This document shows, piece by piece, positions 1 to 54,137 of a stretch of 64,000 nt of DNA (position 1 is the first letter of the stretch; each line of letters starts with the position of its first letter). The position numbers and the translations under genes were made by a program. The stretch lies in the IMG/VR virus record IMGVR_UViG_3300032006_002703, positions 1 through 64,000 of that record. One strand, given 5' to 3'. The DNA comes from a virus. The notes below the pieces were generated by a model, which searched no databases, was not told the DNA's origin, and saw only the letters and a list, made by a program, of their open reading frames with translations.

Positions 1-250
1 ATTTTTAAGGTTTTTTGCACGAAAAAAATCTCCCGAAGTCCTTGAGCTTCAGTGGTTTCCGCAGAAAAAAAAGTCGAGAATGACTTTTGGGGCGTTTTTG
101 CTCCGCTCTACATGAAAAAAACTTTATTTTTTTTCTCCTTGAGCATCAACGACTTAGGTCGCTAGAAGATAGTCGCAAAAGATTTTGCTTGCGATTTCCT
201 CATTTTCTGTCATACTATACTTATAACAATCGAGAAAGACCTTTAGAAAT
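1..250 (+). repeat. 235-nt leader repeat, copy A
   Basis: This stretch is closely similar to 2614-2850. Shared blocks include TTTTTTGCACGAAAAAAATC, AAAAAAAGTCGAGAAT, TTTTTGCTCCGC and GATTTTGCTTGCGATTT. It ends in a likely promoter (TTGCGA, then TACTAT near 224) ahead of the gene at 252. It holds two small direct repeats starting CCTTGAGC (40 and 138), each able to form a hairpin with a five-base loop. The last 24 bases match the first codons of the gene at 2836, but the ATG has become ATA here, so this copy uses a later start. It looks like a shuffled promoter/leader cassette or a structured RNA; no protein is convincing in it. Confidence 0.75.
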
Positions 251-32293: not shown

Positions 32294-32818
32294 ATGAAGG
32301 AATCCAATAAAGCAGAGTACCAGCAAGGCAAACTTCATAGGTCTGCGTTGTATAAGGCCTGTCAAGACGCCCAGACTTTATACGATCTAATTGGAGATGA
32401 CGATGTCCTCGAGGAATGGGTCGCGGAACAAATTAGGGTTTCTACTGAAACCTTGGAGACTGTTTTAAAGTATGTTGAATACGAAAAGGCTTTTCCTGCG
32501 ATTCCAGATTCCAGCCCAATTGCCGACGAAGAAGAGCAAAAAAATGAAAATAATTATCTCTCTAACGAAGATAAAAGGTATCCAACTCCCATGGAAGCGG
32601 AGAATGGGGACGGATTTATATCAAGGTGCATTGTCGACCCCAATATGAAAAACCGTTACCCTGAGCAGTCTGATAGATTTATGGCCTGCATGCTCATATG
32701 GAAAGAGGTCGGAAAGCCTGGTAGTGGAGAAGTTGATAACCCTGGGGAAAAATTTGAAGACCCTATGGAGGCTCCTCAGGAGGAAATTAAAGATCCTACA
32801 AAACCTGTTCTTCCTTAA
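32294..32818 (+). CDS. Hypothetical late protein, 174 aa
   Basis: Begins MKESNKAEYQQGKLHRSALY; helical first half. The second half has ISRCIVDPNMKNRYPEQSDR followed by FMACMLIW, a small conserved-looking Cys-containing block, then a Pro/Glu-rich tail. A GTGTAAAAC motif at 32280 precedes it. Its 3' end overlaps the convergent ClpC-like gene by 23 bases. Function unknown. Confidence 0.5.
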   Translation: MKESNKAEYQQGKLHRSALYKACQDAQTLYDLIGDDDVLEEWVAEQIRVSTETLETVLKYVEYEKAFPAIPDSSPIADEEEQKNENNYLSNEDKRYPTPMEAENGDGFISRCIVDPNMKNRYPEQSDRFMACMLIWKEVGKPGSGEVDNPGEKFEDPMEAPQEEIKDPTKPVLP

Positions 32819-35318
32819 TGGAATAACAAATCTCACCTTTTTTGTAGCTAAAGGTGATTGAGTGATCTATATCAAGCTCCTTAGATAAAAGCAGTTCTGA
32901 GAGCTTATTTTCTATTAAAGTTTGAATTGCTCTTTTAATCGGTCTCGCTCCAAGATCTTCCTGTTGGGCAACTTCAGCCAGATGACGAACAATCGAGGCA
33001 GTAAGTTTCATCTTTACCCCTTTCTTCCTTAGCTTATTTTTTAGATTTTTCATTTCAAGGTGAATGATTTTTCGAAAATCTTCATCACTAAACTTATGAA
33101 AGACGACTACCTCTGTCATTCTATTTACAAGCTCTGGCCTTAATAGTTTTTTTGCTTGATCTAGAATTTTATCTTTCATTTCTCCTTTGTTGTCATTATT
33201 TGTTGCTCCAAAGCCCATTGATAGTGATTTTTCAAAAAGATCTGAGCCAATATTTCCAGTAAGTATGATTACTGCGTTTTTGAACGAAGCTTCTCTGCCA
33301 AAATTATCAGTGAGCCTACCTTCTTCCAGAACTTGAAGCAAACTTTGCAGGACCTCTGGGTGCGCCTTGTCGATCTCATCAAATAAAACAACGCTATATG
33401 GCTGCCTGCTTATTCTTTCCGTTAGCTGTCCACCTTCTTCGTATCCCACGTATCCAGGTGCGGCGCCTATTAATTTCGAAGCAGAAACTTTATCGGAATA
33501 TTCGCTCATGTCTAGTTGGATAATTTTATGCTTCTCTCCAAAAAGAGATTTTGAGATTGATTTCGCCATATGGGTTTTGCCTGTTCCTGTCGGCCCCAAA
33601 CAAAGAAAACTTCCCATTGGTTTATTCTCTTCTCCTAGACCCGACCCAGACCTTAACATTGCTTGAACTACTGCATTTATTGCGTCGTCTTGCCCGATGA
33701 CCGTTTTTTTCAAAGATTTAGATAAGGTAAGGAGTCTTTGATTCTGCGTTTGAGATAATTGAGATACTGGTATCTTAACTTTTTGAGAAACAATTCTGTA
33801 TATATCTTCTTCCTTTACTGGACTAAATTTCTTGGAGCATCTGTGGCCCCACTTCGTCAATAGATTGGTATATTCTATTAAAACCTCTCTTTGCTGATTT
33901 TGAATATCTACTAAACTTTTTCCTATTTTACTCAGTTCTCGCTCTTCCTTTACTAGTTCCTCCAATTCCACTTCTAGCGCCTTTGCGCGTTTAGGCCTTT
34001 TGAAGCTGCGAATTTTTACTCGCGATCCTGCTTGATCAATAATATCTATAGCCTTATCTGGGAATCTTCTGTCATGAATATACTTTTTTGCTAAAGTTGT
34101 AACAAGTTCGAGTACTTCGTCTGAGTATTCTACCATATGAAATTCTTCATATTTTGCTTTAGTCCCCTTTAGTATTTCTAGGGTTTCTTCTTCGCTGGGC
34201 TCTTCAACGAAAACTGGCTGAAAGCGGCGATCAAGCGCCCCGTCCTTTGTGATGCTCTTTTTGTATTCGTCTTGTGTTGTTGCTCCAATGCAAATCAATT
34301 CGCCCCTAGATAGGGCTGGCTTAATCATATTTGCCGCATCCATGCTTCCCTCTGCACTTCCTGCGCCTATAATTGTATGAATTTCATCAACAAATAAAAT
34401 TATATGCTCTGAAGATTTTACTTCTTCAAGCGCCTGTTTTAAGCGTTCCTCAAACTGTCCACGATATTTTGTCCCTGCTATCATTGCCCCAAGGTCAAGG
34501 CTATAGATAACCTTGCCAAGAAGATGCTCTGGACAATTTCCGTCGGCTATATTTTGCGCAAGGCTTTCTATGATTGCGGTTTTGCCTACTCCTGCCTCGC
34601 CGAGAAGTATTGGATTGCTTTTATAGCGACGACATAAAATTTCACACAAATCCGCAACTTCACTGCTTCTTCCTACTATTTTATCAAATTTCCCAGCAAT
34701 CGCAAGATCATTGAAATTAGTTCCGTATTTTTCTAGGGCTCCGCTTTCTTTTTTTCTAGAGGGTCTAATTTGTGGTGGCGGCGGAGACCCAAAGATGCCA
34801 GGATCTTCATTGCCTTGCTCCTCCTCTGAGGACCAAGGGGAGTGAGGCATATTTTGGCTGAAGTCTTGAGATAATTGAAAATATTGCTGAATTTGTTCAA
34901 TGATAACATCTTGAGGGATGCCTAGCATTGCGAAATATTTATTGATTGGCGAGTCGTCATACTTTAGCATCGCGAGAAGTATGTGTTCTAATCCTACATA
35001 TTCATGATTAAACCTGTTGCTTAGGGTCATTGCTATTTGTAAAACATTTTTTATTCCTGCGCTATATTTAAACTTAGTTTTGCCGTCTATTGAATCTTTT
35101 CCTTTTTTTAGTCTTTTTTTGATTGCCCTCACAAAGGAATCAATATCAATCCCTAGGGATATAAGAAGCTCATGAGTTATCCCTGCATTTAAACTAAGTA
35201 TCCCAAGGAACAAATGCTCAAGAGTAACTGTTCTGTGGGATAGTTCTTTTGCCTGCTCCTTGGCTCGCTTAATAGCCCTTTGCGCTCGTGGTGTGAAGTT
35301 TGGCTTGCTGTCCATCAT
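32796..35318 (-). CDS. ClpC/ClpA-type AAA+ unfoldase
   Basis: 840 residues, full family length. An N-terminal Clp_N repeat domain (1-150), AAA-1 with Walker [12 protein letters not shown] (near 235) and Walker B LFVDEIH, a middle region, and AAA-2 with [13 protein letters not shown] (near 575) and LFDEIDKA. A tripeptide MGF in LSMGFGATN sits where ClpC carries its ClpP-docking xGF loop, so it may dock on host ClpP. It would unfold proteins for refolding or degradation. A full ClpC in a phage is unusual. GTGTAATTAG lies just upstream (35321-35330). Confidence 0.93.
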
Positions 35319-35329
35319 ATCTAATTACA

Positions 35330-37891
35330 CTATTTAAGGTCTGAAAGTTTCATGTATATTGTTTCATCCATTATTCTAATATCATCGATAAATAAGGCAT
35401 CGTCTGATTTTGCTCCATAAAGAACCGCGATACTATTCTTTTTGGGCATGATTTTTCCACTATCAAAGTATTGATCATATTTATTTGATCTCCTACTGTT
35501 GCAAAGCATTCCTTTGACCTTTCCGACTTCATCTTGAAGATCCACGCTTAAGTAACGGTTTCCGTTTCTACTTAATCTTTTATAGCAATCACTAATTACC
35601 CCTATGAATCTAGCCTTATTTCCGTCATTCATAGATTCGAAGTCAGCCGTGCTGTAAAACGCCTCTCCGCTTCCTGCAAAAACATTTTTTAGGTTTGTTG
35701 TATATGAATAACCTAGGAGCTCATTCTCGAAATACCAATTTGCAAATTTTTCAAATTTACTATTCCTGTCGTATATTTTTTTATACAAGTCGTATTTTTT
35801 CTTAAAGGTTTGAAATCTACTTTCTTTCATTAGAGGCCTTCCGTCATCTCCCACTAATTTACCAGCTTTTGCGTCAGCAATGGCATTAAGGAGCCGATAT
35901 TCATATTTTTCCCCTAAAGCTATGAAGTTTCTTTTTTCTCTATCGGTTAATAAATTGAAGGCTTGGGCCTCTAGAACCAAAAGTGGGCGACTCCCTCTAT
36001 AGTTAGACAGGGCTCCCGCTTGTATGAGGGCGCAAAGGGTTCCGATGTTAAGCTTGGCCTGTTTTGCGGCGACAAAAATGTCGTATTTTGTGGGGGTTCC
36101 GCTTTCCCTAAAGTCCCTCAAGGCTTGTAGAGATTTTGCGCTAACTCCTTTGATGCTGTTTAAACCAAAGCGAATATCCTTGCCGTCTATTGCGAAATCC
36201 ATATCTGATTTTGCTAAATTTGGAGGAAGCAGTTTCATGTTAAAGTGAGGAAGTTCTCTTGTGATTTTTGCAATTTCTTCTTGTGGAGCGGGTTCATATT
36301 CCGTCATTCTTAAAAGTGATAAAGCAAAAATTTGCGGGTGGTTAAATTTCAAATAAGCTGTCCATGCCGCAAGCGTTGCATAACACAGTGAGTGGGATTT
36401 ATTGAAAGAATAATTTGCACTATCTTCTGCAAGAGACCACAAGACTTCTCCGATTTGTGGATCTAAATTATTTTCTTCTATCTTTTCTTCAATTTTAGCT
36501 TTCCAGGCTGGCATTTCTTCTACCTTTTTCTTCCCCACAATTCTACGAAGCTGTTCAGATTCATCAAGAGTAAATCCTACCTTTACGGCCATTTTCATAA
36601 GCTGCTCTTGATATAGAGGGATGCCTCCTGTCGATTCAAGAATTGAATCAAAAAACTCATGAACAGATTGGGTTTCATTGGTTTCTGCATATCTTTTATA
36701 ATTATCCAAAAAATCCAATGCTCCAGGTCGTGCGATGGCAATAACAGCACTTAATTGCTCTAAGCTACTAGGTTTAATTTTTTTACAAACATGAAAATTT
36801 GCATCTGCTTCTAGTTGAAATAATCCGTGTGGACAGCGAAGGTCCTGTAGAGGAAGGTATAATTCTTCGGAATCCAGGTCAATATTATATACATCCATAT
36901 TTAATTTTTTGCATGCATCGTATATTACGCTCAAGGTTCTGAGTCCAAGAATGTCGAATTTAACCATTAGCTCTGCAACCCAATTCATATCGTACCCTGT
37001 AACCAAATTCCCTTCGCTGGTTGTTTGAAGAGGGCAATAATCGGAAATCTCATCGTAAGAAATGGCAATACCAGATGGATGCACTCCAGTATTTTTATTA
37101 AGCCCTTCTAGCTTTCGTGCGATTTTGTAAACTTTTTTATTCTTTTGTGCCCAGAGCCTGAATTTTTCACTTTCCTCAAGAGCCTCTTCTAGGGGAGCAA
37201 CTTTACCGAAATGCTTTGGAATTGAGTCGCTTACTTCATTGACCTCTTGCTCATCATAGCCTCCTACGATTTTACCGCATTCTTTAATGCAAAGCTTTCC
37301 GCTTAAGGTATTGAGGGTTAAGATTTTTGCGGTACGAGCAGGATATTTTTCTTCAATATATTTAATTACTGTTTGTCTATGTTCGTAGGCTATGTCATTG
37401 TCCACGTCAGCTAAAAGACTTCCGTCTAGGTAAGTAATTCCTTTTTGTACGGTTTTTTTTGCCCTGCTTTTACTCACGAACCTTTCAAAGAAAAGTTCGT
37501 TTTTTACTGGGTCAACTTGGGTGACACCAATTAAATATAGAATTAAAGATCCCGCCGCTGAACCTCTACCTGGACCAACTGGGATGCTGCTTTCGTGACA
37601 AAAATTAATAACATCCCAATTAAGCAAAATATAATCAACAAAACCCAAATCAAAAAAGACATCCAGCTCCATCTTTGCTCTGTCGTAATATTCCTGCTTG
37701 TTTTCAAACTTGTCGATTCCCCGATCCTTTACACCTTGCCAGCTTAAGCTTTTAAGGAATTCGTAATTTGAAATTGAGTTTTTAACCCCCAGTTTCTCAT
37801 AATATTTATCTTCAATAATAATTTTAGGAAGCCTTACGCCTGGCGGCGCACAGTCTTCGTATTCTTTAAAATCTTCTAAAAATTTACTCAT
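35330..37891 (-). CDS. dnaE: DNA polymerase III alpha, catalytic part (split)
   Basis: 853 residues from MSKFLEDFKEYEDCAPPGVR. It holds the DnaE palm: PVGPGRGSAAGSLILYLIGV, catalytic Asp pair in LLADVDND, third Asp in MVKFDILGLRTL, then fingers (RIVGKKKVEEMPAWK, FNKSHSLCYATLAAW) and a C-terminal OB-like region (FIGVISDCYKRLSRNGNRY). The PHP domain that normally starts DnaE is absent and encoded separately at 39026-39763. The ATGA overlap with the exonuclease gene sets the start at 37891. Confidence 0.92.
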   Translation of the reverse strand: MSKFLEDFKEYEDCAPPGVRLPKIIIEDKYYEKLGVKNSISNYEFLKSLSWQGVKDRGIDKFENKQEYYDRAKMELDVFFDLGFVDYILLNWDVINFCHESSIPVGPGRGSAAGSLILYLIGVTQVDPVKNELFFERFVSKSRAKKTVQKGITYLDGSLLADVDNDIAYEHRQTVIKYIEEKYPARTAKILTLNTLSGKLCIKECGKIVGGYDEQEVNEVSDSIPKHFGKVAPLEEALEESEKFRLWAQKNKKVYKIARKLEGLNKNTGVHPSGIAISYDEISDYCPLQTTSEGNLVTGYDMNWVAELMVKFDILGLRTLSVIYDACKKLNMDVYNIDLDSEELYLPLQDLRCPHGLFQLEADANFHVCKKIKPSSLEQLSAVIAIARPGALDFLDNYKRYAETNETQSVHEFFDSILESTGGIPLYQEQLMKMAVKVGFTLDESEQLRRIVGKKKVEEMPAWKAKIEEKIEENNLDPQIGEVLWSLAEDSANYSFNKSHSLCYATLAAWTAYLKFNHPQIFALSLLRMTEYEPAPQEEIAKITRELPHFNMKLLPPNLAKSDMDFAIDGKDIRFGLNSIKGVSAKSLQALRDFRESGTPTKYDIFVAAKQAKLNIGTLCALIQAGALSNYRGSRPLLVLEAQAFNLLTDREKRNFIALGEKYEYRLLNAIADAKAGKLVGDDGRPLMKESRFQTFKKKYDLYKKIYDRNSKFEKFANWYFENELLGYSYTTNLKNVFAGSGEAFYSTADFESMNDGNKARFIGVISDCYKRLSRNGNRYLSVDLQDEVGKVKGMLCNSRRSNKYDQYFDSGKIMPKKNSIAVLYGAKSDDALFIDDIRIMDETIYMKLSDLK

Positions 37892-38529
37892 ATTTCTATA
37901 TTCCAAATCATTTTATTAAAGACTTCTGCGTTCATTTTAATATCGTACAGGGCGTCGTGGAGTTTTTTAGGGTCAAATTTAAGATCGTAATCCTTGCAGC
38001 ATTGTGTTAGGTTTACTTTGAGTTTTCGTTCGATTAAGTTTGTTAACCTATATTGCCAAGCGAGACGATTTTCTTTTGCCGAAAGTTTTATTTCTTTTTT
38101 TATTGCCTTAGCGATACAGGCGGTATCTAGGCATCTATTTATATAGCTATAATCTGTTTTTTTATTTAAAAGTTTTCTGTGGATATTGTGAATATAGACG
38201 TCAAAGCCTAAAATATTGTGGCCTACGGGAATTACATTGTCGTCATATAGGTATGATTCAAAATGCTCCAGCGCCTCTTTTGGGTCGCTTGCCCTTTTAT
38301 CGTATTTTGTTTTTGTCCAGCCCGTGACCCTTGCAGCGCCCTCCGAGACCTTTAAGTCTTTCCACTTTAGCCAGTAGTCAGCCTTTTCTAAAACTTCGTT
38401 TCCCTGCATTAAGAGAAATGCGAGCTGCCAAGGCTTGTTTTCTTTCGAGGTCAAATTTAGGTGACAGGTCTCATAGTCAAAAAATAAGTATTTTTGATTA
38501 TTTTTAAATCTTAATAAGTCTTCTTTCAA
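37888..38529 (-). CDS. DnaQ-like 3'-5' exonuclease (DEDDh)
   Basis: 213 residues with FFDYETC (ExoI, Asp-x-Glu), PVGHNILGFDVY (ExoII) and KLHDALYDIKMN (ExoIII with His and Asp). This is the proofreading-type fold. It lies between the two polymerase parts, joined by ATGA overlaps on both sides, so it very likely proofreads for this polymerase. Confidence 0.88.
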   Translation of the reverse strand: MKEDLLRFKNNQKYLFFDYETCHLNLTSKENKPWQLAFLLMQGNEVLEKADYWLKWKDLKVSEGAARVTGWTKTKYDKRASDPKEALEHFESYLYDDNVIPVGHNILGFDVYIHNIHRKLLNKKTDYSYINRCLDTACIAKAIKKEIKLSAKENRLAWQYRLTNLIERKLKVNLTQCCKDYDLKFDPKKLHDALYDIKMNAEVFNKMIWNIEI

Positions 38530-39029
38530 TTTATATCCTTCCTTAATTCTGTGTTTCCGTAATTTATGAAAAGCTCTTTTCCTTCTTCTATTTCTTCACT
38601 AGCTGTATACCTAAAAAGCATTGAGTCATAATCAAACTCATACATTATATTTGGATTGTCTGAATGATTGTATACCATTCCAAGCCCCAAGACAAAGGCA
38701 TGAGAAAATAAAGATTCTAAATTTTCATACCCAAGATCCTTCAGGCTTTCCAATAGCTCCTCTTTTAAGTCTTCGTCGTCAACCAATTGATGGAGAAAAA
38801 GTTTTGAAGAAAGTTTTTCGTACTCTTCTTTCGTGTTTACGCAAAGACGCCCAAACATATACCTTCTCATTTCATTATCTTCCCCTCCTTTATCTTTTTC
38901 AGGGATAATAAAATGGCATTCCTCTACAATCTCACCTTCTTCGATTTTGCTTTTTGCAAAAACTCCCCTTCCCTTTATTGAAGATTTTCCTATTATTAAT
39001 TTTTTCGGAGACACTAAGTCGTATTTCAT
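38526..39029 (-). CDS. SET-domain protein
   Basis: 167 residues from MKYDLVSPKKLIIGKSSIKG. SET motifs: KGRGVFAK, GLGMVYNHSDNPNIMY (the NHS-x-x-PN signature) and EEIEEGKELFINYG (the catalytic Tyr end). SET proteins usually methylate lysine on proteins. The start at 39029 follows GGAGG and overlaps the PHP gene as ATGA. Translation coupled into the polymerase operon suggests a replication protein as its target, but that is inference. Confidence 0.88.
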   Translation of the reverse strand: MKYDLVSPKKLIIGKSSIKGRGVFAKSKIEEGEIVEECHFIIPEKDKGGEDNEMRRYMFGRLCVNTKEEYEKLSSKLFLHQLVDDEDLKEELLESLKDLGYENLESLFSHAFVLGLGMVYNHSDNPNIMYEFDYDSMLFRYTASEEIEEGKELFINYGNTELRKDIN

Positions 39030-39763
39030 TTTACCGCCTCCATACAAAATTCGTCACTACCAAAGTGATCTAAGTTTGGTTTTGCGAGAGATTTAGATTG
39101 GAATTGTCTTCCGCAAATGCACTTATATGTTTGAAATGCCTCTATATCTTCGCGGCTCTTATAGTATATAGACTTCGTTAATTCAGTTTGAAGATCGTGA
39201 CTCTTTGCAAATTCCTTAACTCTATCCCCTATTAATTGATCGAATGGCAGGTTATTTTTTTCAATAAAAAACGTTGGATTTGTGAATCTGAAATCTGGAA
39301 CACAATTATTGAACGTCATTGTATTATTGAATATAAAGGAATCATAAAATGGAATAGCCATCTTAAGAAGGTCTTCGTTCCATAGTTTTTGCAAGGCTTC
39401 GAAGTTCGTGAAGCCATCGTTTTCAGTAAAAGCGTGGCTGTAGATTTTATTTAAAAGTTTACAGCCTTCTCCATTTTTCGCAAAGATTATAATCTTATGT
39501 GTGCCGTTCGCTTCGCTGCTAGGACCGTTTGGACGTACGTTTAACTTAAGTCCAAAGATAATTTTTTTATTTAAATCTCTTGCGGTGTTGTGTGCCTTTA
39601 GGAATCCAGTAAGAGAGGTCTCCACCAGCACAACTTCTTGAAGATCAAACTCTTCCGCAATCGAGAAAATGCTATCTGCCCCATCTGGCTTTACCTTTGA
39701 GGGATGGTCTAGGGTTAAAATACTTTTTCCTATACTAAAATGCGATGTGAAAAGTGGAATCAT
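39026..39763 (-). CDS. DNA polymerase III alpha, N-terminal PHP part (split)
   Basis: 245 residues that read like the PHP domain of DnaE (MIPLFTSHFSIGKSIL start, DLQEVVLVETSLTGFLKAH, KIIFGLKLNV, LLNKIYSHA), ending in a CICG...C cluster just where the palm would begin. The usual HxH metal ligands at the start are missing, so PHP phosphoesterase activity is unlikely. It probably pairs with the product of 35330-37891 to make one polymerase. Confidence 0.85.
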   Translation of the reverse strand: MIPLFTSHFSIGKSILTLDHPSKVKPDGADSIFSIAEEFDLQEVVLVETSLTGFLKAHNTARDLNKKIIFGLKLNVRPNGPSSEANGTHKIIIFAKNGEGCKLLNKIYSHAFTENDGFTNFEALQKLWNEDLLKMAIPFYDSFIFNNTMTFNNCVPDFRFTNPTFFIEKNNLPFDQLIGDRVKEFAKSHDLQTELTKSIYYKSREDIEAFQTYKCICGRQFQSKSLAKPNLDHFGSDEFCMEAVK

Positions 39764-39770
39764 GGTGTAT

Positions 39771-39799
39771 AGAATACTGTATTTTTAAACAAAAGTCAA
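39771..39799 (-). promoter_or_regulatory. Sigma70-like promoter, TTGACT-17-TATTCT
   Basis: Minus-strand TTGACT (39794-39799) and TATTCT (39771-39776), 17-nt spacer, seven bases before ATG 39763. It heads the four-gene polymerase operon and predicts a leaderless first message. Confidence 0.75.
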
Positions 39800-49050: not shown

Positions 49051-49060
49051 TGTATTACAC
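49051..49060 (-). promoter_or_regulatory. Late-type promoter motif, GTGTAATACA
   Basis: Minus-strand GTGTAATACA four bases before ATG 49046, overlapping the last codons of the acyl-CoA dehydrogenase gene. Confidence 0.5.
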
Positions 49061-50872
49061 AATACTCTCTAAAAATTCATGTTCCCCATTTAGGATTTCT
49101 TTTGCTAGCGCATAGTTTTTCTTGTCGTTATTTTTTGATATCGCTTTAAATTTTTCCTCTATTTTTATTTTTGAATTTTTAAATACGCAATCCGCTAGCT
49201 TTCTTGCTTCTTTTGTGTTAATCGATTGAGCTCTCGACGAAGAGGCGGCGATAACAAATAATTCTGCACCGATTTCTGCCAGTCTCCCAAGAAGTAGCTG
49301 CTGTTTATCTAGTGCGGGTCCGTATCTTACCATTGAATGAAAAAGCTTTCTCGCAAGCTTTTTGCTAGTTTTTGAAACATACTTTAATTGACCTTTTAAG
49401 GCGGGATCCATACCATTTGGTATTCTATGAGAAAAAGGGAGCCACTGCTTTGGGTACCATTTTGCATAAAACCATGCCGCTTTAATTGCTGCGACCATTC
49501 TTGTTTTCATTGGCAGTCTACTGTCTAAAACTGCACCTGCTGCCTTGAGGTGGGGATCTAATGCTTCTCTTGCAAGGATGAGTCGCATTATTTCGCTTGA
49601 CCCTTCAAAAATAAGGTTAATTCTTAAATCTCTAAACATTCTCTCTACTGCAGGGTTAAGTTGCCCTCTGTTTTTTAAAGACTGCGCGGTTTCGTAGCCT
49701 CTTCCGCCTCTAATTTGCATTGTTTCGTCGATCATTTTCCAGGCGGTTTCTGTTCCCCACATTTTTGCTATAGCAGATTCAACTCTAATATCGTGATTTT
49801 TATTGTCTGCCATTTGTGCGGTTAATAGTACCATGGATTCCATAGCAAACGTATTTGCAGCAAGGTGAGCTAACTTATCTGCAATTGCGGAATGTTTTCC
49901 TATTACACAGCCCCACTGTGATCTGGTAGACGTCCACTGTCTGCAAACCTTAAGCATCCATTTTGTTGCGCCAACACATATGGCGGGGAGGGTCAATCTT
50001 CCAATATTTAAAGTTCCCAAGGCAACTTTCATCCCCCTCCCTTCTCCTAGTATAATATTTTCTTTAGGGACGTAAACTTCATCAAATTTTACAACTCCAT
50101 TGTATAACGCCTTAAGCCCCATGAACCTGCATCGATTAACTATACTTACTCCTGGCATATCCATGTCTACAATAAAAGCTGTAATTTGCTTTTTTCCATT
50201 TTTGTCTGGGGTTCTAGCCATTACTATGATGTGTTCCGCTTTTAATCCATTGGTGCACCAAAGCTTTTCTCCATTTAATACAAAATGACTTTTGTCTTCT
50301 GAGAGCTTTGCTTCTGTGATCATTTTGGAGGGGTCAGAACCTACTCCATCTTCCGTTAAAGCAAAAGCGCTTACCGCACCATTGCTGAATTTTGGTAAAT
50401 ATTTTTCTTTTTGCTCTTCTGTTCCGTACATCAAAAGGGGTTGGGGCACGCCTATTGATTGATGCGCGGACAGTAGGGCAGATATATTTCCGCACTCCGA
50501 GCCGCAGACCATTGCAGCCTTTGAGTAATTTGTTTGAGATAAACCTCTTCCTCCGTATTCTTTTGGGATCTTGATTGCAAAGGCTCCAATTTTTGCCAGC
50601 TCTTTAAATACCTCATCGGGAATTTCCCCATTTTCATCTATGGCGTCAGGGTCTACGTATTCGGTAAAAACATTTTTTAAATCCGAAGTGAAGTCTTCTC
50701 CCATTTTTGATTGGTGTTCGTTTTGCTGGGGAAATGGAAATATATCGTTAAAGTTTATATTTCCACTATATAATCCACCTGCAAACGTTTTATTTAAATC
50801 CTCTCTCCCTGCTTCCGCAGCCTCAAGTGCGGCAGCTTTATCTTTCGACATTTTTGATGTATCTATTGACAT
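49055..50872 (-). CDS. Acyl-CoA dehydrogenase (long-chain type)
   Basis: 605 residues, the length of VLCAD-type enzymes with an extra C-terminal domain. FAD/acyl motifs: ALTEDGVGSDPSKM (171-184) and LNGEKLWCTNG (199-209); the catalytic base Glu423 is in IFEGSSEIMRL. It oxidises acyl-CoA to trans-2-enoyl-CoA. It starts two bases after the stop of the FadB-like gene. All key residues are kept, so it appears functional. Electrons would need the host's electron-transfer flavoprotein. Confidence 0.94.
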   Translation of the reverse strand: MSIDTSKMSKDKAAALEAAEAGREDLNKTFAGGLYSGNINFNDIFPFPQQNEHQSKMGEDFTSDLKNVFTEYVDPDAIDENGEIPDEVFKELAKIGAFAIKIPKEYGGRGLSQTNYSKAAMVCGSECGNISALLSAHQSIGVPQPLLMYGTEEQKEKYLPKFSNGAVSAFALTEDGVGSDPSKMITEAKLSEDKSHFVLNGEKLWCTNGLKAEHIIVMARTPDKNGKKQITAFIVDMDMPGVSIVNRCRFMGLKALYNGVVKFDEVYVPKENIILGEGRGMKVALGTLNIGRLTLPAICVGATKWMLKVCRQWTSTRSQWGCVIGKHSAIADKLAHLAANTFAMESMVLLTAQMADNKNHDIRVESAIAKMWGTETAWKMIDETMQIRGGRGYETAQSLKNRGQLNPAVERMFRDLRINLIFEGSSEIMRLILAREALDPHLKAAGAVLDSRLPMKTRMVAAIKAAWFYAKWYPKQWLPFSHRIPNGMDPALKGQLKYVSKTSKKLARKLFHSMVRYGPALDKQQLLLGRLAEIGAELFVIAASSSRAQSINTKEARKLADCVFKNSKIKIEEKFKAISKNNDKKNYALAKEILNGEHEFLESIV

Positions 50873-50873
50873 A

Positions 50874-52850
50874 TTAGTGTGGTCCTGAAAATTTACTATA
50901 CTCTATGGGGCCACCCTTAAAGGGTGCCCAACCTGTTCCCATGATCATTGCAAAATCGATATCGTCTGTAGTTTTTGCAACCTTTTCTTGTATGCATTTC
51001 TGCGCTTCTTGAGTCATTGACTCTACCATCTTGCTTTCTATGTCGCACAATATGGGGTTGTCTTTTTGCATTTTTAAAAATACTGGGTTTGGACAGACAG
51101 CTTCCCTCCCTTTATACAGGAAGAATCCTTTTCCGCTTTTTCTTCCAAATTGTTTTGTTTCTAGGATTTTATGAATTATTTGAGGGACCTTAAAATCATC
51201 TAGCCTTTTTTCTAAATCAAGCGCTACATGAGCTGCAACATCGAGACCTATTTCATCAAGCAGTCTTAGCGGACCCATAGGCATGCCAAAATCTAACATA
51301 CAGTTCTCTATGGAGGTTAGCGGGTGCCCGTCCGAAAATAATCTTAAAGCTTCAACAAGATAGGGTAATAGGATTCTGTTAACCAAAAAGCCTGGACTAT
51401 CCTTAACCACTACTGGAAGCTTTCCTATTGAGATTACAAATCTTTTTGCTCTATCTTCTGTCTCTGCGCTAGTTTTCTCTCCAACAACAATCTCAACCAA
51501 TTTCATCTTATGTACGGGATTAAAAAAATGAATTCCCACAAAGTTTTCTGGTCTTTTAAGTCCTTTTGCAAGTTCGGTTATTGACAGCGCAGAAGTGTTT
51601 GTCGCGAGAATTGCATCTTCTGCTAGCCCGCTCTCTATTTCCTGCAGGACCTTTGTTTTTAATTCGAAATTTTCTACAACAGCCTCTATCGCTAGACTTT
51701 GCTTACTAAGGGGTACAGAGTTTTTTGTGAAGTTCAGTTTTCCCAAACAATCTCTAACTGTGGGCCTATCTATTTTATGCTTAAGTACCGCAGAAACAAA
51801 AAGTTTGCCTATTTTTTTGAGACCAGATGCTATTGCGCTCTCAGAAACATCCTTTAATAAAACTCTTTTTCCTCTAGAGGATATCCATTGGGCAATCCCT
51901 GCGCCCATTGTTCCTGCGCCAATAACGACAATATCATCATCTATTTGTTTATCAAGTTTCGGGTCATACCATGGCATTCCATGGGGAAGCTTTTTCGCTC
52001 TTTCTTGCAGAAAGAATACTCTTATTAAATTTCTACAAGCCTTAGTTTTTGCGAGAGAAAGGAACCCTTTCTTTTCTAGCTTGAGTGCTGCGTACTTATT
52101 TTTAAAAAAACTTTTTGCCACAACTTCAATTATTTTATTGGGTGCAGGGTAGTTTCCTCTAGTCTTTTTATAAACACTTTTCTTTGATAGAAAAATTGAA
52201 ATCGGCAATAGTATGGCTTGTGTTAATTTATTGACTTTTCTTTTTGGTTTTTTGGAACCACACAAGCTAACGGCCTCTTTAAAAAGATTTTCCTTGTGGC
52301 ACATCTTATCCACCATTCCTAATTTAAGCGCTTGAATTGGGGCATAGATTTTACCAGAAAGCAATGCCTGTAGGGATTTTGGTAAACCAATTATTCTTGG
52401 CAACCTAGTTGTTCCTCCCCATGCGGGTAATATCCCAAGCATAACCTCTGGGAGCCCTAGTTTTGTGCATTTTTCATTGGATGCAATTCTGTATTTACAT
52501 GCAAGAGACAATTCTAATCCCCCACCGAGGCAGGCGCCATTGATTGCGGCCACGGTAGGTATACTTAACCTTTCTATTCTATTAAAACTCTCTTGTCCGT
52601 AGCGCAAAACTCCACGAAGCCACTTTTCGTTTGTTAAATTATCTTTCATGGATAGAAGATCCGCTCCTGCAAGATAAATCGAGGGTTTCTTGCTGACGAA
52701 AATAAGACCTTTAATATCTTTATTTCCTTCGACCTCCTCCAGGATTTCATTCAATCTAATAAAAAAATCCATATTTAAGATATTTGCTTTAGAGTTTGGT
52801 TGATCAAACTCTGCTACTGCAATTCCGTCTGTTATATTAAAATTAATCAT
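50874..52850 (-). CDS. fadB: Bifunctional enoyl-CoA hydratase / 3-hydroxyacyl-CoA dehydrogenase
   Basis: 658 residues from MINFNITDGIAVAEFDQPNS. Crotonase part: AGADLLS oxyanion region, GGGLELSLAC with Glu113 and LGLPEVMLGILPAWGG with Glu135, the two catalytic acids. Dehydrogenase part: NAD site VVIGAGTMGAGIAQW (near 313) and HFFNPVHKMKLVE with the catalytic His. It hydrates enoyl-CoA and oxidises the product to 3-ketoacyl-CoA. ATGA overlap with the thiolase gene fixes the start. FadB/FadJ-like; intact. Confidence 0.95.
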   Translation of the reverse strand: MINFNITDGIAVAEFDQPNSKANILNMDFFIRLNEILEEVEGNKDIKGLIFVSKKPSIYLAGADLLSMKDNLTNEKWLRGVLRYGQESFNRIERLSIPTVAAINGACLGGGLELSLACKYRIASNEKCTKLGLPEVMLGILPAWGGTTRLPRIIGLPKSLQALLSGKIYAPIQALKLGMVDKMCHKENLFKEAVSLCGSKKPKRKVNKLTQAILLPISIFLSKKSVYKKTRGNYPAPNKIIEVVAKSFFKNKYAALKLEKKGFLSLAKTKACRNLIRVFFLQERAKKLPHGMPWYDPKLDKQIDDDIVVIGAGTMGAGIAQWISSRGKRVLLKDVSESAIASGLKKIGKLFVSAVLKHKIDRPTVRDCLGKLNFTKNSVPLSKQSLAIEAVVENFELKTKVLQEIESGLAEDAILATNTSALSITELAKGLKRPENFVGIHFFNPVHKMKLVEIVVGEKTSAETEDRAKRFVISIGKLPVVVKDSPGFLVNRILLPYLVEALRLFSDGHPLTSIENCMLDFGMPMGPLRLLDEIGLDVAAHVALDLEKRLDDFKVPQIIHKILETKQFGRKSGKGFFLYKGREAVCPNPVFLKMQKDNPILCDIESKMVESMTQEAQKCIQEKVAKTTDDIDFAMIMGTGWAPFKGGPIEYSKFSGPH

Positions 52851-54103
52851 TCGCACGTCTCAATTTCTATAGCGGACCCCTGGCCTCCGCCAACACAGAG
52901 CGAGGCGAGTCCTTTTTTTAGACCCCTTCTTTTTAACTCTTTAGCTAAAGTAAGAATGATTCTTGCTCCAGAAGCTCCAACAGGATGTCCTAGCGCTATC
53001 GCTCCTCCATTAACGTTAAATTTCTCATCTGGAATTTCGCCAATATCGTTTTCGATTACTTTCTTGCATGCAAGTGTCTGTGCGGCAAACGCTTCATTTA
53101 TTTCTATCAAATCCATGTCTTTAAGGTTGACTCCAAGTTTCTTGATTGCAAACACTGGGCCAAGGCCCATTCTTTTTGGGTCGCAGCCAACATGAGTGTA
53201 ATTGTTTATTTTTGCAATAGGTTTTTTTCCTGTTTTATTTAATCCTTCTTCAGTCATTAACAGCAAGGCAACTGCTCCGTCTGTTACTTGAGAAGAATTA
53301 CCTGCGGTTACCGTTCCTTCTCTTTTGTCAAAAATAGCGCGAAGCCTGTTGAGTTTTTCTGTCGTCGTATCTTCCCTGATTCCATTGTCTTTAGTGATAA
53401 CTTCGCCGCTGGGAGAGTTAATGCAATCATCGTTTGAAATGTATATTGGTGATATTTCATCCGCTTGAATAAGACTGGTTGCCATGGAGGCTTTCCCGTG
53501 AGAAAGAAAGGAAAAAATGTCCTGCTCTTTTCTGCTGATTTCATATTCTCTCGCTAAAATTTCTGCAGTCTGCCCCATATTAATTCCAGACAGGGGATCG
53601 TGCAGGCCCATGCGTAAACTAATTTTTGGAGCTAAATCACTTAATCTAAATTTTAAGATTGCTTTTAATTTCTCTTTTTTTGTTTTTGCCCCGAAGAGAG
53701 AAAATATCTTTTTAGACGTTGATCTTGAAAAAAGCAGGGGCATTTGAGACATGCTTTCCGTTCCTCCTGCAAGGAATATATGGCCTTCATTAGCCTTTGC
53801 TTTTGCCGAGGCACACGTTACTGCTTCGAATCCAGAGGCGCAATTTCTATGAACGGTTACTGCTGGTATATTTTTGGGCAAACCAAGTCTTGTTCCAATA
53901 ATCCTAGAAACATTCATTTCGTCAGCGGGCTGCCCAACGCAACCGAATATAACTTCATCTATCAAACCTAGGTCTATGTCTACTTCAGATAGGACTCCTT
54001 TACTCGCTGCAATCCCTAATGCAGACGCAGATTCCTCTGCAAGAGAGGTTCCCATCTTGCAAAACGGGGTTCTTTTTCCCTCTACAATATATAAGTCAGA
54101 CAT
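52847..54103 (-). CDS. fadA: Acetyl-CoA acyltransferase (3-ketoacyl-CoA thiolase)
   Basis: 418 residues from MSDLYIVEGKRTPFCKMGTS. Active-site Cys88 in HRNCASGFEAV, His in IALGHPVGASG, and a second Cys in CVGGGQGSA near the end: the complete thiolase triad. It cleaves 3-ketoacyl-CoA to acetyl-CoA and a shortened acyl-CoA. It is first in the operon. TATACT lies six bases before ATG 54103, but no good -35 box is seen; GTG 54109 is an alternative start. Confidence 0.95.
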   Translation of the reverse strand: MSDLYIVEGKRTPFCKMGTSLAEESASALGIAASKGVLSEVDIDLGLIDEVIFGCVGQPADEMNVSRIIGTRLGLPKNIPAVTVHRNCASGFEAVTCASAKAKANEGHIFLAGGTESMSQMPLLFSRSTSKKIFSLFGAKTKKEKLKAILKFRLSDLAPKISLRMGLHDPLSGINMGQTAEILAREYEISRKEQDIFSFLSHGKASMATSLIQADEISPIYISNDDCINSPSGEVITKDNGIREDTTTEKLNRLRAIFDKREGTVTAGNSSQVTDGAVALLLMTEEGLNKTGKKPIAKINNYTHVGCDPKRMGLGPVFAIKKLGVNLKDMDLIEINEAFAAQTLACKKVIENDIGEIPDEKFNVNGGAIALGHPVGASGARIILTLAKELKRRGLKKGLASLCVGGGQGSAIEIETCE

Positions 54104-54137
54104 CGGCACAGTATATAGTAAATAATCTGTGAGAAAA

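What the first reader, a model, noticed from the sequence alone, without database searches (positions are those of the whole stretch)
35330..39763. DNA polymerase III alpha split in two around a SET protein and a proofreading exonuclease
The PHP part (39026-39763) and the palm-to-C-terminus part (35330-37891) of DnaE are separate genes, broken exactly at the PHP/palm border. Between them are a SET-domain gene and a DnaQ-like exonuclease. All four are linked by ATGA overlaps (39026-39029, 38526-38529, 37888-37891), so they are translated as one coupled set from one promoter. The PHP HxH ligands are lost, and the separate DEDDh exonuclease can replace any proofreading. The break is ordered, not a random frameshift.
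Basis: partly seen in the sequence, partly recalled or inferred. Interest (0 to 1): 0.78.

Follow-up and report, generated by a model that had tools for sequence, protein, structure and literature searches.

The report
Three-gene phage DNA polymerase III
A large group of uncultured, mostly marine phages makes its copying enzyme, DNA polymerase III, as separate proteins: the usual front domain (dead as an enzyme but still conserved), a proofreading exonuclease and the polymerase body come from neighbouring genes, which offers a natural way to find out what that front domain does.

Summary
In a 107-kb virus record, DnaE is encoded as a free PHP protein (39026-39763) and a palm-to-OB protein (35330-37891), with a DEDDh exonuclease gene between them. 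The free PHP protein models at pLDDT 90.5 and matches DnaE PHP domains end to end (Z 21.4), well above other PHP proteins (Z about 12). None of the nine PHP metal ligands is kept. All catalytic residues of polymerase and exonuclease are invariant. The same PHP, exonuclease, polymerase order occurs in 98 distinct viral loci plus 38 others, never fused, in one strongly supported clade. PHP is under purifying selection. A TTGACN-16..18-TANNNT promoter just before the PHP start codon is found at 80 of 93 loci (0.4 expected), so the gene set probably starts with a leaderless mRNA.

Corrections: the SET gene is swappable cargo (5 phages; 15 others carry an IMPDH-type gene in that slot). One of three overlaps is TTGA, not ATGA. 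Splits near this border have precedent: Microbacterium phage AnnaSerena and Gordonia phage Sienna encode PHP and palm separately, with intact PHP ligand motifs and no exonuclease between.

Best reading: a three-subunit phage Pol III core with PHP as a non-catalytic structural and docking subunit. Complex formation is inferred, not shown.

The parts
39771..39799 (-). sigma-70-type promoter, TTGACT-N17-TATTCT, ending 7 nt before the PHP start codon; predicts a leaderless mRNA
   Evidence: site; same architecture at 80 of 93 family PHP starts, 0.4 expected in shuffled sequence; 81 of 83 PHP starts lack a Shine-Dalgarno sequence
39026..39763 (-). free PHP-domain protein of DnaE, 245 aa, all nine metal ligands lost
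   Evidence: PF02811 1.9e-7; model pLDDT 90.5; DnaE PHP Z 21.4; ligand alignment
39026..39029 (-). ATGA stop/start overlap PHP/SET
38526..39029 (-). SET-domain protein, 167 aa; swappable cargo gene, not part of the core
   Evidence: PF00856 2.2e-13; slot contents
38526..38529 (-). TTGA stop/start overlap SET/exonuclease (TTG start)
37888..38529 (-). DnaQ-like DEDDh exonuclease, 213 aa (D18, E20, D110, H191, D196 invariant)
   Evidence: PF00929 1.2e-13; alignment A3; residues read; PolC exonuclease domain 2p1j 4e-6
37888..37891 (-). ATGA stop/start overlap exonuclease/polymerase
35330..37891 (-). DnaE palm-thumb-fingers-HhH-OB protein, 853 aa; D162, D164, D313 invariant; no C-terminal tau-binding region
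   Evidence: model pLDDT 85.3; Thermus DnaE 286-1123, Z 35.7
32796..35318 (-). ClpC-like AAA+ unfoldase directly downstream, the conserved last gene of the cluster
   Evidence: follows the polymerase gene on the same strand in 95 of 104 loci

Best explanation
This is a phage-encoded C-family (DnaE-type) replicative polymerase whose N-terminal PHP domain became a separate subunit once, in the ancestor of a large uncultured and mostly marine phage clade. A sigma-70-type promoter immediately before the PHP gene drives a leaderless mRNA that carries PHP, an optional cargo gene (SET here), exonuclease, polymerase and a ClpC-like unfoldase. Stop/start overlaps couple translation, so the pieces are made together. 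The PHP subunit is no longer a nuclease. It most likely refolds against the palm/finger half, stabilising the polymerase as the fused inactive PHP does in E. coli, and helps to hold the separate DEDDh exonuclease, which supplies proofreading. Shown: gene identity, fold, lost and kept active sites, clade-wide conservation, selection, promoter conservation. Inferred: assembly into one complex, proofreading by this exonuclease, PHP as its dock.
For: Separate genes in the same order at 98 loci distinct by exonuclease sequence, none fused, in 11 of 12 MAG contigs (the twelfth starts inside the exonuclease gene) and 27 of 27 loci of a divergent branch. Split clade monophyletic: FastTree 0.998, UFBoot 100. 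PHP fold, with the alpha PHP-epsilon chimera 4gx9 as top Foldseek hit. 0 of 9 PHP ligands. Catalytic residues invariant in the other two proteins. PHP dN/dS 0.055-0.124 where dS could be computed. Conserved promoter. Loss of PHP ligands goes with a separate exonuclease in bacteria, and a dead PHP stabilises E. coli Pol III (PMC3666897). Precedent for reassembly of a split phage polymerase: gp43A/B of phage 25 co-purify and are active (PMC2988022).
Against: No complex was modelled: the structure tool takes single chains only. The exonuclease lacks the C-terminal tail with which E. coli epsilon binds PHP (it is 213 aa and the RNase_T domain ends at 204), so docking must differ. About 20 residues of linker between E. 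coli positions 247 and 269 are missing from both proteins. Close PHP pairs are less similar than the matching polymerase pairs (for example 72% against 85%). No beta-clamp gene was found in the record.
Confidence: 0.77

Rival explanations
1. Neutral split: gene breakage in an ancestor separated PHP from palm, the pieces still associate as in fused DnaE, and nothing new was gained. The exonuclease between them and the fixation are historical accidents.
For: Borders near the same place broke independently in AnnaSerena and Sienna, where PHP keeps its ligand motifs; phiST is broken inside the palm; two members of this clade carry split inteins in the palm gene. DnaE in phages seems easy to break.
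Against: The exonuclease is kept between the pieces in every complete locus, while other genes in the slots change. The PHP active site is fully replaced by a conserved set of other residues (S10, S14, K90 invariant; K6, E48, D49 at 90% or more), which suggests a changed role.
Confidence: 0.35
2. The free PHP protein left the polymerase and now does something unrelated, and the palm half works alone or with the host's factors.
For: All nine catalytic ligands are lost and a new invariant set appeared. The polymerase half models with good confidence on its own.
Against: PHP never leaves the polymerase operon and never occurs without it in complete loci. A PHP domain is described as strictly conserved in bacterial replicative polymerases (PMC3666897).
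Confidence: 0.12
3. One reading: the SET protein is a functional component, for instance a methyltransferase acting on the polymerase.
For: SET is translationally coupled in the window and occupies the same slot in four other phages.
Against: Only 5 of about 98 loci have it; 15 have an IMPDH-type gene in that slot and most have nothing. SET carriers are scattered in the tree: their common ancestor spans 60 tips with support 0.59.
Confidence: 0.04
4. Artefact: sequencing frameshift, chimera or mis-assembly.
For: The window is a single metagenomic contig.
Against: Independent contigs in IMG/VR and in GTDB MAGs show the same arrangement; an exonuclease gene lies between the pieces; purifying selection acts on each.
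Confidence: 0.005

Closest known systems
Microbacterium phages AnnaSerena/Krampus (cluster EF; gp56 345 aa + gp57 767 aa) and Gordonia phage Sienna (gp64 318 aa + gp66 811 aa)
   Same: DnaE encoded as a PHP protein and a palm-onwards protein, broken near the PHP/palm border; one sentence in PMC7302621 notes two genes for Pol III alpha in cluster EF.
   Different: The cut lies some 30 residues further downstream, PHP keeps the metal-binding motifs (HSHS/HTHT, TEHG, SDVHY), no exonuclease lies between, and related phages such as Penelope2018 and CoffeeBean are fused. AnnaSerena's palm falls outside the marine clade.
E. coli Pol III core (alpha-epsilon)
   Same: PHP without metal sites, separate DEDDh proofreading exonuclease, DnaE palm (PMC3666897).
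   Different: PHP is fused to alpha and keeps four of nine ligands; epsilon has a PHP-binding C-terminal tail that this exonuclease lacks; alpha has a tau-binding C terminus.
PolC (Gram-positive replicase)
   Same: The exonuclease is closest to the PolC exonuclease domain (TIGR01405 7.5e-12; 2p1j 4e-6), and the order PHP, exonuclease, palm resembles PolC's domain order.
   Different: The palm is DnaE-type, and all parts are separate chains.
Pseudomonas phage PB1 (Pbunavirus)
   Same: A phage 3'-5' exonuclease gene (gp58) directly upstream of and touching a DnaE gene (gp57).
   Different: DnaE gp57 is a single 1035-aa chain.
Jumbo-phage minimal split Pol III alpha (group 2.2, PMC7824862)
   Same: C-family polymerase core split in two phage proteins.
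   Different: Split inside the catalytic core, genes far apart, no PHP, and found beside a family B polymerase.
Split gp43 (PolB) of T4-related phages 25 and 44RR
   Same: Phage replicative polymerase made as two chains that reassemble (PMC2988022).
   Different: Different polymerase family; the phage 25 gap holds a homing endonuclease.

Membership tests
C-family DNA polymerase, DnaE type | palm, fingers and HhH domains of DnaE | tested here: met
C-family DNA polymerase, DnaE type | three catalytic aspartates | tested here: met
   D162, D164, D313 invariant in 58 sequences, aligned with Thermus DnaE motifs
C-family DNA polymerase, DnaE type | a PHP domain belongs to the enzyme | tested here: inconclusive
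   A DnaE-type PHP is encoded in the same operon in all complete loci; physical association could not be tested
Canonical fused DnaE | PHP and palm in one polypeptide | tested here: not met
   separate genes in every locus
Catalytic PHP exonuclease | nine metal ligands (H H D/H H E H C/H D/N H) | tested here: not met
   none kept (with the consensus from PMC3666897)
DEDDh exonuclease (DnaQ-like) | DEDD plus histidine | tested here: met
   D18, E20, D110, H191, D196 invariant
Bona fide Pol III epsilon (DnaQ) | C-terminal tail that binds alpha's PHP domain | tested here: not met
   RNase_T domain ends at 204 of 213 aa; definition from PMC3666897
PolC | PolC-type palm in one chain with the exonuclease | tested here: not met
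   palm scores 455.7 bits for TIGR00594 (DnaE) and 30-36 bits for PolC models
Split-intein DnaE (cyanobacterial type) | intein halves at the break | tested here: not met
   PHP aligns to DnaE to its last residue; no Hint or intein match in PHP or polymerase. By contrast real intein halves occur inside the palm gene of L254 and L156
Homing-endonuclease-fractured gene (T4 type) | homing endonuclease gene in the break | tested here: not met
   the gap holds the exonuclease and SET; cargo in ten relatives is IMPDH, cupin, JmjC-like, methyltransferase, SET or unknown
Multi-subunit polymerase complex | physical association of the three proteins | not testable with these tools
   only single chains can be folded

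The most novel reading that the evidence does not exclude
The dead PHP domain has become a dedicated adaptor subunit: PHP and exonuclease form a detachable proofreading module that docks on a PHP-less DnaE core through a new interface (the exonuclease has no epsilon-type tail), giving a three-subunit C-family replicase unlike the known cellular ones.
Probability: 0.35. Interest if true: 0.66.

Novelty: new variant of a known kind. Interest (0 to 1): 0.52.

Why it matters
Why bacterial replicases keep a PHP domain after it has lost its metals is an open question (PMC3666897). Here nature has cut that domain free and kept it for the whole history of a phage clade, so its contribution to stability, activity and exonuclease binding can be measured by adding or leaving out one protein. 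It also suggests that a C-family replicase can be a multi-subunit enzyme at its core, and it gives a specific marker for a large uncultured group of phages.

Tried and rejected
SET as a subunit: rejected by its rarity and by slot swapping. Split intein at the PHP/palm break: rejected. Second dnaE, a family A polymerase or a beta clamp in the record: none found, but the record may be incomplete. Close cultured relatives: none; tblastn of the PHP and exonuclease proteins in 50,697 phage records gave one marginal hit (E 0.07) and none; a divergent PHP (L143) gave none. A fused relative inside the clade: none found in three viral scans and one genome scan with the polymerase gene. PDB sequence search with the PHP profile was weak (best E 0.046), so structure was needed. 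Thermus Tn-seq paper checked for tolerance of dnaE breaks: not informative. General promoter and terminator scan of the region not clearly above chance; the conserved promoter became visible only by comparing relatives.
Full report
What is there. The window is the first 64 kb of a 107,410-bp IMG/VR virus record. On the minus strand four ORFs follow one another: PHP 39763-39026, SET 39029-38526, exonuclease 38529-37888 and polymerase 37891-35330. Two of the three junctions are ATGA; the middle one is TTGA because the exonuclease starts with TTG. Pfam assigns PHP, SET, RNase_T, and DNA_pol3_alpha + finger + HHH_6. A ClpC-like ATPase follows at 35318-32796.

Is the first protein really DnaE's PHP? 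Sequence alone is modest (Pfam 1.9e-7; phrog_405 1.7e-8). The family profile also matches the first ~250 residues of cellular fused DnaEs (best E 3e-9, L196). The AlphaFold model from 74 sequences has pLDDT 90.5. Its best Foldseek and VIA hits are all DnaE/PolC PHP domains: Thermus 7-255 Z 21.4, E. coli 6-247 Z 21.2; other PHP proteins follow at Z about 12. The polymerase model (pLDDT 85.3) covers Thermus DnaE 286-1123 (Z 35.7) and E. coli 269-910 (Z 34.5). The break therefore falls in the short linker between the PHP and palm domains. The polymerase match ends before the C terminus of cellular alpha, so a tau-binding end is missing.

Active sites. In an alignment with fused DnaEs, each of the nine PHP ligand positions listed in PMC3666897 is replaced or deleted: HxH, the D of LLDG, TDH, GCE, the H before LV, the C loop, and D and H of NDVHY. 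Instead the family has its own conserved residues (S10, S14, K90, D141, Y201 invariant; K6, E48, D49 at 90% or more). E. coli has lost five of nine. The polymerase keeps its three aspartates and the exonuclease keeps DEDDh.

How general is it? PHP, exonuclease and polymerase are separate, in this order and on one strand, in all 132 loci that hold all three; loci that lack one are almost all cut by a contig end. After removing identical exonucleases 98 remain. Eleven of twelve family contigs inside GTDB MAGs and 27 of 27 loci of a divergent branch agree. No fused member was found. In trees with cellular and phage DnaEs the split proteins form one clade (FastTree 0.998; UFBoot 100), so one ancestral event is the simplest account. 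Purifying selection on PHP: dN/dS 0.055-0.124 in four pairs where dS could be computed.

What SET is. Between PHP and exonuclease lie nothing (61 overlaps and 6 gaps under 31 nt among 98), or SET (5), or an IMPDH/GMP-reductase-type gene (15), or cupin and JmjC-like genes; between exonuclease and polymerase lie other genes. SET carriers are scattered in the tree. SET is cargo. Its NHSxxPN and ELFINYG motifs are intact by eye, so it may be an active methyltransferase.

Expression. 80 of 93 PHP starts have TTGACN-16..18-TANNNT with the -10 box usually 6-7 nt before the start codon; shuffled sequence gives 0.4; exonuclease and polymerase starts have 3 each. PHP starts lack a Shine-Dalgarno sequence in 81 of 83 loci. 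The same architecture occurs at 8 places in the window against 0.05 expected. The set is thus likely transcribed from this promoter as a leaderless mRNA. Coupled translation is inferred from the overlaps.

How it probably works. The three proteins are most likely one replicase core. Support from knowledge: a dead PHP stabilises E. coli Pol III and is a binding site of epsilon (PMC3666897, PMC3919608), and a split phage polymerase reassembles (PMC2988022). What remains inferred: the complex, PHP as dock, and proofreading by this exonuclease. Against a simple copy of E. coli: the exonuclease has no epsilon tail, and its sequence is nearest to the PolC exonuclease domain.

Known precedents. A split near the same border exists in Microbacterium phage AnnaSerena (gp56/gp57) and Gordonia phage Sienna (gp64/gp66, with an 85-aa gene between), with PHP ligand motifs intact and fused relatives. 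Cellulophaga phage phiST is broken inside the palm. Jumbo phages have a PHP-less split core (PMC7824862). So 'split phage DnaE' is not new as a kind. New here are the clade-wide fixation, the dead PHP, the exonuclease between the parts and the leaderless operon. Literature searches covered only open-access papers.

Limits. Counts are of loci, not of independent events; near relatives remain. Trees use few outgroups. The record may be incomplete, so the absence of a clamp or of other polymerases is weak. 'Mostly marine' is an impression from the MAG sources and not a tested count. The hosts are unknown; MAG labels (Flavobacteriaceae, Halobacteriovorax, Woesebacteria and others) conflict and probably reflect binning.

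Noticed in passing
window 49055-54109 (-): A beta-oxidation gene set in a phage contig: acyl-CoA dehydrogenase, FadB-like enoyl-CoA hydratase/3-hydroxyacyl-CoA dehydrogenase and thiolase, between the ribonucleotide reductase genes and the phage nuclease/primase/helicase genes. A second contig of the same phage clade (L263, same contig as L023) carries the acyl-CoA dehydrogenase (80% identical) and the end of FadB.
   Followed up: partly
L254:5995-9042 and L156:5980-8964: Natural split inteins inside the polymerase gene of two relatives, at two catalytic motifs (GRG|SAAGS and SFNK|SHS): the N part ends in an intein N half and the C part begins with a short intein C half.
   Followed up: partly
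window 582, 1780, 4064, 4613, 39763, 42361, 46204, 58174: Leaderless-type promoters TTGAC(A/T)-N17-TANNNT ending 6-8 nt before an ATG, 8 in the window against 0.05 expected, including those of PHP, the ribonucleotide reductase small subunit and the DnaB helicase.
   Followed up: partly
window 32796-35318 (-): A ClpC-like AAA+ ATPase gene is the fixed last member of the polymerase cluster: same strand, within 100 nt, in 95 of 104 loci. Why an unfoldase travels with the replicase is not explained.
   Followed up: no
L264:15221-18572 and L266:3501-7133: Convergent PHP/palm-border splits in two cultured actinobacteriophages with PHP ligand motifs intact.
   Followed up: partly
L230:3074-9688 (Alicyclobacillus phage KKP_3916): DnaE is in at least four pieces over 5.6 kb with all genes annotated as hypothetical; probably introns or inteins.
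   Followed up: no
L261:41629-45229 (Cellulophaga phage phiST): DnaE broken inside the palm, between the GS motif and the catalytic aspartates, into adjacent 525-aa and 673-aa ORFs; the annotation listed for the stretch has no feature there.
   Followed up: partly
L038:8021-8974 and 14 other loci: An IMP dehydrogenase/GMP reductase-type gene sits in the PHP-exonuclease slot of 15 phages, a possible purine-metabolism gene coupled to replication.
   Followed up: partly
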